64,000 bases of DNA from Candidatus Kuenenia stuttgartensis (GTDB taxonomy: Bacteria > Planctomycetota > Planctomycetia > Gemmatales > Gemmataceae): contig CAMCLK010000009.1 of assembly GCA_945875585.1 (NCBI GenBank), positions 43,879 through 107,878 on the forward strand. The letters are read 5' to 3'. The notes beneath the pieces were generated by a model. It did not search any database, had not been told where the DNA came from, and saw only the letters and a list, made by a program, of their open reading frames with translations. A program made the translations under genes and the position numbers. This document shows positions 3,998 through 10,064 of this stretch, in pieces (within the stretch, counting starts at the first letter, position 1; every line of letters begins with the position of its first letter).

Positions 3998-5326
3998 TCA
4001 GGGCATTCTTAACGCGGCATGATTTTCCAAAGGCAACTGAGCGGTTTCAGTGACCCGGTCCAAAAAGGCTGCGTTGCAACCGTGCATGACAATTTCAGCC
4101 ACCTGAAAATCGCTGAAGTGCGCGCGTAGTGCTGCCACAGTCGTATCCGTGATGGTCCATGGGGCAACAGCCATTTTTTGAGCCAGCGTGATCACCGCCC
4201 GATCCTTGTCGGACAGGGTGCTTGCATTGCTGTCGATCCGTTTCAATTCATCCATTCCGATTCCGGCAGCAGCCATGCGTTTGGCAATCAGGTCGAGCAT
4301 ATACCATGCGCGATCTTGCCGGGCTGTTGTCCAAGCCACCAGAAGTTTGGAGCGCAAATCGAGTTTGCCTTTGGTTTCGGCTGCTTGAAGGACGCTGATT
4401 TTGCTCTTGTTGGCTACCGGGAAAGTTTTCAAAAGCCTGACCCAAGCTGGTTCAGCATCGCCCGGTGCCAATGGCAAAACAGGATCACGCCGTGCAACCA
4501 ACTTGAGATGGGCGGCTAGGCCATCGAACGGCTCGAGTGGCGGCCTGGCAGAATCGGTTGCTTTCATGGGTGCTAAACTTGATTTCTGTTTTGCAAACAG
4601 GTCCGAAGTTGGGGTTAGGAAAGAGTCGAGTTCAACATTGGGTTTGGTTTGATCAGTCCGGCGGAAAAACGCACCACTTTCCTCGGCGGGAATATTCAAG
4701 GTATCTGTCCAACGATTGGTCGAATTGTAGCCTGCTACAGACTGTGTTATTTCATTGATTTGCATGGGAGTGAAATGTTTTCCTAGCGCAGCAACGTCAC
4801 TTCGATTCACCAAATGTGGGCCACGTGTCAGCTTCAGAGTGAATTCGAAAGCGGCGCGATCGGCCGGTTGGATTTTTTCCCAGTTGCCATCGAGAGAAGC
4901 AATTTCGTCATCCGACAAACCCGCGACCGCGAGTTTGTGTTCCTGATGACCGAGTCAGTAAAAGCAGTCGTTGGCGCGAGAGCTGATCCAGAACAATTTT
5001 ACCTTGAATGTATTGTCCAGACTGAACGCTGGATCTGCTGGCCTTGCCGGAGTTGCCGCGCCAGTAGTGGCTGTACGGGGTGTTCCGGAAAGTGATTCGC
5101 GCAATTCCTCGGCAATGTAGTAAGCGCGAAATCGGCCGTTATTGACCCGCGACAATCCTCCAGCATTGGCGTCTGGTGCAGGTGGCATGGGAATACGTGG
5201 CGTGGCTTTTTTGTGATTCTCAAGGGCTTTCTTCGATTCATCCCGTGTGGAGGCGGCTCTTGGCGTTGCCTCCACCGGCATGGGTTGTTGAACAAGAATC
5301 AACCACGCGATGCTTAATTCGATCAT
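3998..5326 (-). CDS. Carboxymuconolactone-decarboxylase/AhpD-like protein, probable selenoprotein (in-frame TGA)
   Basis: One continuous frame from ATG 5326 to the stop at 3998, broken only by TGA at 4955-4957 (codon 124). Before it: a short hydrophobic leader, a Pro/Ala-rich linker, then NTFKVKLFWISSRANDCFY. After it, in the same frame: LGHQEHKLAVAGL and some 300 further intact residues. These include a second CMD-like half (DRAWYMLDLIAKRMAAAG, DRAVITLAQKMA, FQVAEIVMHG). CMD/AhpD-fold oxidoreductases carry a CxxC redox pair at this place, so the TGA replaces the resolving Cys and yields CxxU with His three residues later. A SECIS-like hairpin follows directly. The start overlaps the upstream lipoprotein stop (ATGA). 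If TGA is read as stop, the product is a 123-residue fragment. Selenocysteine is an inference; a point mutation or base error is the alternative. Confidence 0.8.
4907..4950 (-). promoter_or_regulatory. Candidate bacterial SECIS element behind the in-frame TGA
   Basis: Counting from the base after UGA, bases 18-25 (CAAACUCG) pair with 32-39 (CGGGUUUG) and close a six-base loop CGGUCG. An outer helix pairs GUCAUC (5-10) with GAUGAC (43-48). Bacterial SECIS hairpins lie in the coding sequence immediately after UGA, with a short apical loop containing G residues; the E. coli fdhF loop carries GGUC. Here GGUC falls at bases 27-30, within the distance range known for bacterial elements. SelB binding is inferred. 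Confidence 0.7.
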
Positions 5327-5718
5327 GGCATGTTCTCCTCACGGGTGATGGCTCGATTTGGTCGGGTGACAACCCTATAGGCTACCTTGCGCGATTTATT
5401 ATCTTTGGAACCGTCGCCTTTAAGCGATAGATTGACCACAAAACTAATACCCGCCCCAACCACTTTGCCATCTCCTTCGATGGAATAGTCGGATAGTGAT
5501 GTTCCACGGGCAAATACATCGTCCTGAAAATACACAGGAGGTTTGGCTTGAGCCATCACGTTTTGCCGACTCCCGTTTTTCCACGCCTCAAGAGCTGTGG
5601 TAATGGTGGCTTTGGCCTCCTCCGGAGTGGTGGCTAATCCCATGGTTGACTGACCGCCGCAGCCTGAAACAAGTACCACCAGCAACCCCGCCAACCATTC
5701 AATTCTAAAATGAATCAC
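5323..5718 (-). CDS. Predicted lipoprotein between DUF1559 and the selenoprotein candidate
   Basis: A 131-residue protein with a hydrophobic leader ([13 protein letters not shown]) ending in a lipobox, then a helical [18 protein letters not shown] stretch and a beta-rich remainder. I start it at the GTG at 5718, which overlaps the stop of the DUF1559 gene (GTGA). The frame is open further upstream, but that extension is antisense-like Cys/His/Arg-rich sequence inside the DUF1559 coding region and would bury the signal peptide. The 3' end overlaps the next ATG (ATGA). The three genes therefore look translationally coupled. Function unknown. Confidence 0.78.
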
Positions 5719-6665
5719 TGGGCTACCTCCCCGCCGGTGGCAGAGCCCATGGCGCGCCAAGTGGCCAGGCTGATTGACTGGGAGACAAATCGAAGCGATC
5801 CATCGCACATCACCACATTCACACCGCCAGCGTGGTTGCTGTCGGCTGTTGTGGCAATGCGCCCGGGCGGATACATGCAGGAGTTGCTGAAGGGGCGGGT
5901 TGAATGGAAATAAACGGTGGTGGAGTGGTATCCATACAACCATGGGGCGCCAACATCAGACATGCCTTGATAAAGTAGATTCTTAGTGTCGAGTGAGTCC
6001 GCAATTGTCTGGGCCTCGTCAGCCGTGGTAGGGTATAAACCTTTGACCTGTCCTAGGTAAAATGTATCAGAAACGCTGGAAATGCCATTATTGTAATCAC
6101 CCTTGCGGTGCTCGCTTAGGGCGGCGGTGTTGGAGCTTCCATCAAGAATGTCCGCGAACCTAGTTTTGCTATTGAGGTAAAAAGGTCCATTGGGAGCTGG
6201 CATTCCAAAATTCGGGTCGGAATTCAACGTTGGTGGTAGGCCCCAAAGGATGCCAGAACCTTGGCTGACTCGGTAGTTGTTTCCCGCCCAGCCCGCCGGA
6301 ATGGCGTTGAACGAATCGGAAGGGCACAGGAATGTTTTGATGGTCATGGCTCTGGGGTTGTTGTTTGCCGCAGCGTTCCAGCTTTGGGTGAAATCGATCT
6401 GCTTGAAAATGGCATCCTGTTCCAGATAAGGCAGTAGATACGAATGGGTAGATAAAGACAGGGCGTCGCGGCCAGCAGGAAAAGCCCCTTGGGCTCCATG
6501 ATAACTTTGCAGTGCCAGTCCCATTTGCTTCAGATTGTTGGAGCAGCTCATCCGGTTGGCAGCTTCACGAACCTTTTGAACAGCGGGGACAAGTAGACCT
6601 ATAAGGACGGCAATAATAGCAATAACAACGAGCAGTTCAATCAATGTAAAGCCTTGGCGCTTCAT
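5715..6665 (-). CDS. DUF1559 protein with type-IV-pilin-like N-terminus (copy 2)
   Basis: A 316-residue DUF1559 protein. It starts [17 protein letters not shown], with AAGGAG 7 nt upstream of the ATG at 6665; the open frame above this has no pilin-like logic and is rejected. The [16 protein letters not shown] hallmark follows the membrane segment, and [12 protein letters not shown] near the end is the conserved C-terminal box. It heads a three-gene coupled unit: DUF1559, lipoprotein, and CMD-like selenoprotein candidate. This arrangement suggests that the oxidoreductase acts outside the cytoplasm with a surface or secretion partner, but that is only context. Confidence 0.94.
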
Positions 6666-6829
6666 GGCGCATCTCCTTAAAATAGTGCGATGGAACATAT
6701 AATGGATTGCCTTGGGCGGATGCCTTGAGCAAAACCATGGATTTATTGATGGTGCCACTCGCTATGGGTTTCCATGCGATAACGCATGCCCATGCCGCTG
6801 GCTCTGACAGATTGGAAACGCAATGTTAT

Positions 6830-7292: not shown

Positions 7293-10064
7293 TCAGCTTT
7301 GTGAATTGATCACGATCTTCAGGCCCAATGCTTGAGCCTTCTCAAGAATGGCTAATGTCAGTTCGCTTCTTAAATCCCTCGCCTGATCTGATTTTCCACG
7401 CACGTATGTCACCACGCGCAGCTCAACACCTTTCTCGGAGATGCCATGAAGTCCTACTTCAAGCCGTGATTCTTCAATATTTGGCCGTGCTGACAACATG
7501 TTGTGTGTTTGCTGCTGCAGTTCCATCAGTGCGGAGGGTGGTGATGCAGGGTCGAGGAATACCTGGGTGATGACCCGCTGGTAAATCCGCATGGCCTGAT
7601 TGTTGATATTGCCCCCTGCAACTGTGGCGTTGGGAAGGATTAAAATGGAATCTTCCTTGGTACGCAGACGCGTGCTTCGGAAGCCAACACCTTCCACGGT
7701 TCCTTCATGTGTGCCAATGACAACTTTGTCGCCCACGGCAAAGCTTTTGTCAGCGAACAGCAGCATGGTGGCAAAAAGGTTTTTCAGTGAATCTTGGGCA
7801 GCAAGTGATACAGCCAGTCCAACCACTCCAAGGCCTGCTAGAAAGCGTCCCAGCAGTGCCCCTTCGTCAAAGCATGAAATCAGGTAAATCATGGCGGCAA
7901 TAATCAGCAGTATTTTGAACAGCCGGGTAATAAACGGAACAATCAGATCCTGAAAGCCTTTCCGGCGTGTTGAAGAACCATGGCGGGCGGAGACTGAGCG
8001 GACAAAATCGGCGAGGCCAATGCCAGCCCAAATCACCACACCAGCCAGCAAAAACTTGTCGAATGTATACAAGAAAGAAGCCAGACTGATGGGTAGGTCT
8101 AGGAAAGGCAACAAAAAATAAGTCAAAATAATGATAATGAATATGCGGAATCCTATCAAATTGATTCGTAATTTTTTGGAATCGTGATCTGTCACCGACA
8201 TTGATATCCGCGCAACGATTGGATCGAAAAGCCAATGCTGCAAGTAAAAGAAAAAGAACAAAGTTCCAATTAAAACTGGAATGCCGATCCATTGCCAGAT
8301 GGACAATTCCAAGTAACGGGTTCGCAGAAATTCCGGCATATGCCAGCGGATCCACAAACCCGGAGTTGATTTAAACGATGGCACGCGCAAAAAAGGCTCT
8401 TCAAGATCGTCGGCTACCTTAAGGTCTTGCATCAGGTCGATGGCGGTATCCAGATTTCGGACTGTTGTGTCGGAAAAGCGCCAGCCCGAATCTAGTTGAT
8501 CGGCGCGCCTCGACAGGATGATTCTTCCCAAAGGTCCACGGTGCCATAGGTAGCGGGGCCCCTCTGCTTCTGATGGAATCTCATGAAAATAGACCCGACC
8601 GATTCGGTCCACTACCAGTTTCAGTTTTGCTGCCAACACCGGACCGAGATTGCTACGTGCCGAAACCGGTATTTCCGAAAGGTCCAAACAAGCTGCGGCA
8701 GCCGCGTAGCGTTTTTCATTCATGGCGCGCAGGAACGTGACGAACGTTTCACGAGGCGATGAGCGGCCAGCACTCAGTTCGGTTGGTCCTCGTTCGGAAA
8801 CTGCCAAGTTGTCGTACATCGATGATATTCGCACTACAGTATCACGGTTGAAGCACCATCTACCATCGGATCTTTTCGACAGTTGTATTTTCAAAGCCTT
8901 GTCGCCAAGCGTCACAGGTGCGGACGTCCAACGGTCATCGATTTCGGCCAGGATGGGTTTGACCTTTCGCAATAGAACTTCGAGTTTTTCCGCCAGACGT
9001 GGGCCCTGTCTTTGGGCTTCGTCAGATGGAAGATACGATAGATCAAGCAAGGAGGCCGCGGTCTCCATATGGCTGTCATCATGCTCGGCATCATCGATGG
9101 ATCGTAGAAAAGCGCAGAGCACGTTACGGGGAGATGAAAAATCCTTTGCTAACCCTATTGGCGCTGCTTGATCTTCGAGATCCTGTAATGGATTGATGAC
9201 AGATTTAATAATGTGCCAACGAGCATCAATAGGGCGGTCCTTGACCGCTTCATATAATTTTGAGATTTGCTGGACGCACAACGCGTTGAACACCCATCGA
9301 TCAGGTTTTTCATCAACCTTGATCCTTTCCGACACGACGAAACCTTCGAGTCCCGCATACCAAAGATATGGTGGACGCGACGCCTCGACTGGAACATCCT
9401 GAGGAAACACAAATCCAAGACGCTGTATAGAGAGTCCCAGCATCCATGCCAATCGTTTACCTTCTGACTTGCGTTGTTCACTGGGGATATCCCGCAAATC
9501 GAGACATTGTGCCGCGGCCTCGTAGTCTTCAGCAAGGAGTCGTTTTATAAAAGTTGCAAAAAGCTCTGTTGGTGTTCCGAGATGATCTTCCAATTGATTT
9601 GTTTGTGTTTCGCGTTGATTCCAAATCTTTATCGATTCCTCGTGCAAGGCTGGCAATCCAATAGCTGTGGCGCGGTCGAACCGCCATGATCCGTCAGCAC
9701 CCTTGGCAAGCGTCAGCCGATGCGTCCCTAGCGACCATAGATTCGACACCTTGCCATCGTTTGTCGCATTTGCCTTGACGAAAGGCGGTGAAATAATGTC
9801 GAGTATTTCAAGAAGCATTCCTATTAATTTGCGTTTCTCGTCGGGATCGATTCCTTCTGGAAAATCAACCATCGTCAGGGCTGCAATCATCGACCCTTTG
9901 ACGTTGAGTTTGATGGCTTCGGCAGCAAAACAAAAACTTTCCAGTGCTTTGCGCGGTGTGCTCAGGTCCACTGGAATACCGGTTGGAATCTCCGCAACTG
10001 GCATTTGAGCTGAAGCGCCAGGCAAAAGCATGATGCCTAATATAAACGAGGCGTAATTCAGCAC
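7293..10064 (-). CDS. Large MscS-family mechanosensitive channel with repeated periplasmic domain
   Basis: A 923-residue protein starting at GTG 10064 behind AGAGG, with a signal peptide ending near GASAQ. Residues about 30-570 hold a unit that recurs near 33, 161, 308 and 433, each opening with a (S/T)PRxxxxxF-like helix and an xxAAxCLDLxxIP segment. Membrane helices follow from about 585. The channel core is at 735-920: GLGVVGLAVSLAAQD pore helix, LLFADKSFAVGDKV and ILPNATVAGGNINN, all diagnostic of MscS. Such channels release solutes on osmotic downshock. The repeated N-terminal domain is not part of classical MscS and may sense or bind something in the periplasm. It has 30 bp to the PLD-like gene upstream and may share its transcript. 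Confidence 0.92.
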   Translation of the reverse strand: MLNYASFILGIMLLPGASAQMPVAEIPTGIPVDLSTPRKALESFCFAAEAIKLNVKGSMIAALTMVDFPEGIDPDEKRKLIGMLLEILDIISPPFVKANATNDGKVSNLWSLGTHRLTLAKGADGSWRFDRATAIGLPALHEESIKIWNQRETQTNQLEDHLGTPTELFATFIKRLLAEDYEAAAQCLDLRDIPSEQRKSEGKRLAWMLGLSIQRLGFVFPQDVPVEASRPPYLWYAGLEGFVVSERIKVDEKPDRWVFNALCVQQISKLYEAVKDRPIDARWHIIKSVINPLQDLEDQAAPIGLAKDFSSPRNVLCAFLRSIDDAEHDDSHMETAASLLDLSYLPSDEAQRQGPRLAEKLEVLLRKVKPILAEIDDRWTSAPVTLGDKALKIQLSKRSDGRWCFNRDTVVRISSMYDNLAVSERGPTELSAGRSSPRETFVTFLRAMNEKRYAAAAACLDLSEIPVSARSNLGPVLAAKLKLVVDRIGRVYFHEIPSEAEGPRYLWHRGPLGRIILSRRADQLDSGWRFSDTTVRNLDTAIDLMQDLKVADDLEEPFLRVPSFKSTPGLWIRWHMPEFLRTRYLELSIWQWIGIPVLIGTLFFFFYLQHWLFDPIVARISMSVTDHDSKKLRINLIGFRIFIIIILTYFLLPFLDLPISLASFLYTFDKFLLAGVVIWAGIGLADFVRSVSARHGSSTRRKGFQDLIVPFITRLFKILLIIAAMIYLISCFDEGALLGRFLAGLGVVGLAVSLAAQDSLKNLFATMLLFADKSFAVGDKVVIGTHEGTVEGVGFRSTRLRTKEDSILILPNATVAGGNINNQAMRIYQRVITQVFLDPASPPSALMELQQQTHNMLSARPNIEESRLEVGLHGISEKGVELRVVTYVRGKSDQARDLRSELTLAILEKAQALGLKIVINSQS

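What the first reader, a model, noticed from the sequence alone, without database searches (positions are those of the whole stretch)
4907..4960. Probable selenocysteine codon in a CxxU AhpD/CMD-like oxidoreductase
Seen: one frame runs from 5326 to 3998 with a single TGA at 4955-4957. That TGA replaces the codon for the second Cys of a C-F-Y-C-type redox motif. Directly downstream lie an eight-base-pair stem with a six-base loop containing GGUC and an outer six-base helix. Known: bacterial selenoproteins are decoded from UGA with a SECIS just after it, the E. coli fdhF loop contains GGUC, and AhpD-like selenoproteins are known. Inference: this gene makes a selenoprotein. The 300 or so residues after TGA show no decay. 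The unit (DUF1559, lipoprotein, this protein) would be an unusual setting.
Basis: partly seen in the sequence, partly recalled or inferred. Interest (0 to 1): 0.9.

Follow-up and report, generated by a model that had tools for sequence, protein, structure and literature searches.

The report
Two-domain AhpD-like selenoprotein in planctomycetes
In this planctomycete genome (likely of the Gemmata family) an in-frame UGA codon, found at the same place in ten related genes and followed in most of them by a conserved RNA hairpin, very likely encodes the rare amino acid selenocysteine in the active site of a two-domain redox protein that is predicted to be exported and whose closest database relatives are cut short at this codon.

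The parts
3998..5326 (-). selenoprotein gene, 442 codons plus stop, internal UGA read as Sec (predicted)
   Evidence: 48% identical to a Gemmata Cys protein through both sides of the UGA
4955..4957 (-). in-frame UGA, codon 124, predicted Sec of C121-F-Y-U124
   Evidence: TGA at the aligned codon in 11 of 42 distinct genes, TGC/TGT in 31
4964..4966 (-). codon of Cys121, first residue of the redox pair
   Evidence: Cys in all 56 of 62 alignment rows that reach this residue
4915..4938 (-). SECIS hairpin: 10 pairs, loop GGUC at 4928-4925, 26 nt between UGA and loop
   Evidence: meets the loop, stem and spacing limits of the bSECIS model quoted in PMC13188914
4907..4950 (-). outer six-pair helix (4950-4945 with 4912-4907) around the hairpin; not seen in most relatives' folds
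4652..5029 (-). first AhpD/CMD domain (residues about 100-225), carries C121 and U124
4007..4429 (-). second AhpD/CMD domain (residues about 300-440), Cys and Sec positions held by Ala340 and Met343
   Evidence: internal repeat aligned; structure; Ala or Ser at 340 and Ala or Met at 343 in 62 of 62 rows
5267..5326 (-). hydrophobic N-terminus, signal-peptide-like (weak in this copy, clearer in relatives L073, L075)
   Evidence: sequences; judged by eye, no predictor run
5323..5943 (-). lipoprotein gene (ORF as listed; true start probably inside, before the lipobox-like LVSGC), its stop overlaps the start of the selenoprotein gene (ATGA)
   Evidence: homologue between DUF1559 and this gene in 13 of 17 loci
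5715..6758 (-). DUF1559 gene with N-terminal methylation motif, first gene of the unit
   Evidence: PF07596 174 bits, PF07963 33 bits; homologue upstream in 17 of 17 loci, 47-80% identical

Best explanation
The gene at 5326-3998 is very likely a selenoprotein gene: its single in-frame UGA is predicted to be read as selenocysteine by the SelB and the UCA-anticodon tRNA-Sec that this genome encodes, guided by a hairpin whose GGUC loop begins 26 nt downstream. The product would be a fusion of two AhpD/CMD helical domains. Shown by sequence: the first keeps Cys121-x-x-UGA124, the second has Ala and Met at those places. Inferred: the protein is exported, as its hydrophobic N-terminus and its coupled neighbours (a lipoprotein and a pilin-like DUF1559 protein) suggest. 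Inferred: the Sec124 selenolate attacks a hydroperoxide or a disulfide substrate outside the cytoplasm, Cys121 resolves it as a selenenylsulfide, and a thiol donor resets the pair, while the second domain completes the pseudo-dimer and may bind a partner or ligand, as in Sestrin.
For: Machinery: SelB 380 bits (cut-off 242), SelA 492 (268) directly beside it, SelD 291.5 (125), tRNA-Sec 68.6 (47) with TCA anticodon. Homology: codon 124 is TGA in 11 and Cys in 31 of 42 distinct full-length genes. Constraint after UGA: pN 0.24-0.28 against pS 0.69-0.84 between the window's gene and four relatives, like the upstream part (pS saturated, so only the direction counts). SECIS: 9 of 11 TGA against 0 of 31 Cys genes; of 94 codon columns with one invariant, degenerate amino acid in those nine genes 6 use a single codon, and four of the six are CTC GCG GTC GCG of the hairpin; column pair 24-39 is GC 11, CG 2, AU 1, GU 1, covariation score reached by 1 of 500 shuffles. 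Two Cys genes that encode the same LAVAG peptide (L063, L065) form only five of the six pairs. SelA is over cut-off in 10 of 11 genomes with the TGA form; the eleventh is 59% complete. Fold: pLDDT 88.9, pTM 0.89; AhpD-like chains found by sequence profile, best 2ijc at 6.5e-11.
Against: 2 of 11 TGA genes (L086, L087, one genus) lack the conserved hairpin at that place. Only one of six column pairs shows change on both sides (196 of 500 shuffles reach that), and partners slid by +3 columns show two. No selenium or protein data. The AhpD proton relay is not intact: by counting from the first Cys, the places of PA0269 Glu36 and His55 hold Val109 and Gln128 here, with a His one residue earlier, so peroxidase activity is not assured. 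The window's own signal peptide is weak. Two same-genus genomes (81% complete each) have SelA but no match to this gene. The confidence given is for the Sec reading; for the functional steps it is about 0.5.
Confidence: 0.93

Rival explanations
1. The UGA is an ordinary stop; the 123-residue N-terminal piece and a 306-residue protein started at TTG 4918 are separate products, or the gene is a pseudogene. Database entries of close relatives read it this way.
For: TGA is a normal stop here (26 of 41 mechanical ORFs of 200 aa or more in the window end in it); deposited relatives begin just after it (P0002, P0003, P0004, P0017, P0025 at 305-306 aa).
Against: The break falls inside the active-site motif and inside one helical domain; the same TGA stands in 11 genes as far apart as 42% identity; the hairpin goes with TGA, not with Cys; pN is well below pS on both sides.
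Confidence: 0.02
2. Sequencing or assembly error in this genome.
For: The window lies in a fragmented assembly (113 contigs).
Against: A database protein 97% identical over 69% of the query, with 159 member sequences, starts 13 residues after the same point (P0002), and ten other distinct genes have TGA there.
Confidence: 0.005
3. A selenoprotein, but not a peroxidase: a thiol-disulfide or dehalogenating redox enzyme of the AhpD fold acting on some other exported substrate, for instance its own operon partners.
For: The AhpD relay Glu and His are not in place; the debrominase Bmp8 is among the profile and structure matches; the operon partners are extracytoplasmic by type (inference).
Against: AhpD-like proteins with measured activity reduce hydroperoxides (PA0269, weakly, PMC3141380; Sestrin2, PMC4674687; passages read).
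Confidence: 0.4

Closest known systems
AhpD-like and CMD-domain selenoproteins (CxxU) of the Sargasso/GOS surveys, listed with models such as TIGR01926 and NF041238 in PMC13188914
   Same: CMD fold, Sec in the second place of CxxU, SECIS just after UGA (PMC1088965, PMC2398784, PMC13188914: passages read)
   Different: Two fused domains with Sec in the first and a degenerate second; below the cut-off of each of the four NCBIfam models it matches (TIGR01926 64.2 against 81.8; NF053654 25.8 against 310; TIGR04030 27.3 against 233; TIGR00778 13.6 against 27.8); conserved DUF1559-lipoprotein unit; predicted export
Human Sestrin2 and the fused AhpD-like bacterial proteins compared with it (PMC11429811, PMC4674687: passages read)
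   Different: 12% identity; this protein has no PF04636 match at E <= 1, 9 of 62 family members have weak ones (best E 3.3e-5), and the two seen in detail lie in the first domain below cut-off; no DDYDY motif; the two bacterial analogues with a Cys-free domain named in the passages have it first, not second
PA0269 of Pseudomonas aeruginosa (2ijc/2o4d), single-domain AhpD-like weak hydroperoxidase (PMC3141380: passages read)
   Same: C-x-Y-C motif and fold; best profile match among solved structures (6.5e-11)
   Different: One domain, Cys not Sec, relay Glu36 and His55 not conserved here

Membership tests
Bacterial selenoproteins | in-frame UGA aligned with Cys of homologues | tested here: met
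   31 of 42 distinct homologous genes have TGC/TGT there, 11 TGA
Bacterial selenoproteins | bSECIS: 3-9 nt loop with G in the first two places, 4-16 pair stem, 16-37 nt from UGA (model quoted in PMC13188914) | tested here: met
   loop GGUC, 10 pairs, 26 nt; missing at this place in 2 of 11 TGA relatives
Bacterial selenoproteins | SelA, SelB, SelD and tRNA-Sec in the genome | tested here: met
   all four over curated cut-offs
Bacterial selenoproteins | selenium in the purified protein | not testable with these tools
   bench only
CMD / AhpD-like superfamily (PF02627) | model score over the gathering cut-off | tested here: inconclusive
   this protein 22.6 against 23; 60 of 62 members match at E <= 1 and P0006 scores 36.4
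CMD / AhpD-like superfamily (PF02627) | all-helical AhpD fold with CxxC/U on a helix | tested here: met
AhpD proper (proton relay of five residues) | relay Glu 12 residues before and His 7 after the first Cys | tested here: not met
   Val109 and Gln128 there; position 109 is Val or Thr and 128 is Gln in 56 of 56 rows that reach them; Tyr123 kept, His127 one place earlier
TIGR01926 peroxidase-related | score over 81.8 bits | tested here: not met
   64.2 bits
Sestrin (PF04636) | two AhpD-like domains, active first, degenerate second | tested here: met
Sestrin (PF04636) | PF04636 score and acidic hinge (DDYDY) in the second domain | tested here: not met
   no PF04636 match for this protein at E <= 1; no DDYDY in the sequence

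The most novel reading that the evidence does not exclude
Gemmata-family planctomycetes make an exported, selenium-dependent protein of Sestrin architecture: a Sec-armed first domain and a catalytically dead second domain that senses a ligand or docks onto a surface complex of DUF1559 pilin-like protein and lipoprotein. It would be a bacterial redox sensor built like Sestrin, with the same domain order, whose redox residue switches between Sec and Cys from species to species.
Probability: 0.12. Interest if true: 0.8.

Novelty: new variant of a known kind. Interest (0 to 1): 0.52.

Why it matters
It adds a two-domain, probably exported branch to the AhpD-like selenoproteins and shows that the closest deposited members are cut at the active site. 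Sec and Cys forms alternate among relatives within the order, most of which keep SelA (27 of 30 genomes of the order that carry the gene and were tested), inside one conserved operon, so the gain from Sec over Cys can be measured on matched natural pairs. The same order of active and dead domain as in Sestrin gives a bacterial model for how a fused AhpD dimer might take on a second role.

Tried and rejected
Ordinary stop, pseudogene and sequencing error: rejected (see rivals). Global reassignment of TGA: rejected, TGA ends 26 of 41 mechanical long ORFs of the window. Chance hairpin: rejected. Other genes with this SECIS in the same genome: the R1 search (150 of 4256 first-look candidates scored) found the window's own site (64.6 bits) and seven weak matches (17 bits or less); a read-through check around the seven gave two open frames, neither convincing; selenoproteins with other SECIS types were not excluded. 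RNAalifold on 18 more distant AhpD-like TGA genes gave no common structure; several show a GACCTCC-GGTC-GGAGGTC type hairpin by eye, one base nearer the UGA, so they were kept out of the pair count, which rests on 15 of the 33 TGA sites aligned. A displaced hairpin CGG-GGUCU-CCG in L086/L087 is only a suggestion (centroid of L087; both stretches fold no better than shuffles). Sestrin homology by sequence: profile against PDB up to E 10, no Sestrin chain; PF04636 over cut-off in 0 of 102 genomes of the order, 8 weak matches, all to model positions 10-106 in frames of 136-282 codons; 20 of the 62 members scanned singly, 2 with weak matches. Rows dropped before the 42-gene count: matches not spanning query residues 40 to 390, and repeats of one sequence held in two collections. 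A literature statement on this two-domain family was not found (open-licence library only); supplementary selenoprotein lists, such as S9 of PMC4807772, could not be opened. Searches served the setting and the fold. Database homologues: 120 of 342 were listed. A second structure job was not used.

Full report
Observation. On the minus strand a frame of 442 codons runs from ATG 5326 to the stop at 4000-3998 and holds one TGA, at 4957-4955. It is codon 124 in N-D-C-F-Y-TGA-L-G-H-Q-E-H. The mRNA after it folds into 10 pairs closed on GGUC (4938-4915) within a six-pair outer helix (4950-4945 with 4912-4907), -20.8 kcal/mol, z -2.9, 0 of 200 shuffles as good.

Where. One genome of its family has the same match values as the named record of Gemmata sp. 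IIL30 (L054 and L083), and the nearest named records are Planctomycetota MAGs, so the host is likely a Gemmata-family planctomycete (inference).

Machinery. The window's genome (4.66 Mb, 113 contigs, 93.7% complete) has SelB (380 bits, cut-off 242), SelA right beside it (492, cut-off 268), SelD (291.5, cut-off 125) and a tRNA-Sec (68.6 bits, gathering 47; ARAGORN reads anticodon TCA).

Homologues. The protein search returned 342 relatives, 120 listed. I aligned 61 of them: 55 full-length ones (407-456 aa) have Cys at the place in 54 and Trp in one (P0114; possibly a TGA read by another code), and six cut ones do not reach it. The closest are cut: P0002 (97%), P0003 (87%), P0004, P0017 and P0025 start 13 residues after the UGA, and P0011, P0008, P0105 and P0112 start further in, which is what gene callers do with a Sec gene. 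At DNA level I compared the codon in 42 distinct full-length genes: 11 TGA, 31 TGC/TGT. The other ten TGA genes are four at 63-65% identity to the window's (L079-L082) and six at 42-49% (L060, L064, L084, L086, L087, L073). A further 24 TGA sites lie in related AhpD-like genes among the fetched loci.

SECIS. At homologous columns 9 of 11 TGA genes have all six pairs around a GGTC loop; 0 of 31 Cys genes do (2 of 31 have six pairs with another loop; one, L065, has the loop with five pairs). In the nine genes 94 codon columns have an invariant, degenerate amino acid; 6 of 94 use one codon only, and four of the six are codons +8 to +11, CTC GCG GTC GCG; the other two are twofold Phe and Cys codons. 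In the Cys genes these codons vary. With six related TGA sites added (15 rows), 97.8% of cells pair against 32-54% when partners are slid by 1-3 columns; one column pair shows GC, CG, AU and GU, and the covariation score is reached by 1 of 500 shuffles. Against: the number of pairs with change on both sides (1) is reached by 196 of 500 shuffles and exceeded by the +3 slide (2). The rows were chosen around the hairpin, so the percentage leans towards it. Loop size, stem and 26-nt spacing meet the bSECIS model of PMC13188914 (passages). Against: L086 and L087, from one genus with SelA, lack this hairpin.

Evolution. On a 42-gene tree with the trait residue masked, Sec and Cys need at least 5 changes, 3 forced by well-supported branches, 5 in the bootstrap range. 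SelA is over cut-off in 10 of 11 genomes with the TGA form (the other is 59% complete) and in 17 of 25 with the Cys form; none of the six genomes of the class outside the order has SelA over cut-off, and all six carry Cys. So absence of the Sec trait can explain Cys outside the order but mostly not inside it. The direction of the changes cannot be told.

Active site. Compared with PA0269, Cys, Tyr and Cys/Sec are kept, but the relay Glu place (by counting, outside the printed alignment) is Val109 and the relay His place is Gln128, with His127 beside it (relay residues from PMC3141380). The reaction is therefore open: hydroperoxide reduction is the leading guess, disulfide or other redox chemistry the rival.

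Setting. I tested 17 of the loci held, the 11 named ones and six others. DUF1559 lies upstream in 17 of 17 (L065 and L089 appear to be one genome), Sec and Cys forms alike; the lipoprotein lies between in 13 of 17 (in L072 after the gene; not convincingly found in L073, L086, L087). Stop of the lipoprotein and start of the selenoprotein overlap as ATGA in the window. N-termini of relatives look like signal peptides (L073, L075), by eye only. So the product likely works outside the cytoplasm.

Verdict. On sequence evidence a real selenoprotein of a known superfamily, in a new two-domain, operon-bound form whose closest deposited relatives are cut. The literature seen holds AhpD-like CxxU selenoproteins (PMC1088965, PMC2398784, PMC13188914, passages) and Sec machinery in Planctomycetes including Gemmata obscuriglobus (PMC4807772, section 17 read); searches showed nothing on this two-domain family.

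Noticed in passing
L079 7311-8669 (TGA 8337-8339) and L080 to 8762 (TGA 8424-8426): In two relatives a second two-domain CMD gene with its own TGA and the same CTCGCGGTCGCGGG hairpin follows; in L079 its ATG overlaps the stop of the first. Its domain order is reversed: Cys-free domain first, Sec domain second.
   Followed up: partly
L086 6253-6315, L087 6247-6309: Two TGA members of one genus lack the conserved hairpin; a later CGG-GGUCU-CCG hairpin with a possible compensatory outer pair (G-C to U-A) may replace it.
   Followed up: partly
G447, G448 (same genus as the window's genome): Both have SelA but no match to this gene; each is 81% complete, so loss and missing sequence cannot be told apart.
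   Followed up: no
database proteins P0002-P0004, P0017, P0025: Deposited relatives of 305-306 aa begin 13 residues after the UGA: likely mis-annotated selenoprotein fragments.
   Followed up: yes
database protein P0114, motif N-N-C-H-Y-W: One full-length relative has Trp at the Sec place; possibly a TGA translated with a code that reads it as Trp.
   Followed up: no
L063, L083, L085, L089: These relatives carry a second, more distant Cys-type two-domain CMD gene (N-C-Q-Y-C) 1.4 to 2.9 kb further on the same strand.
   Followed up: no
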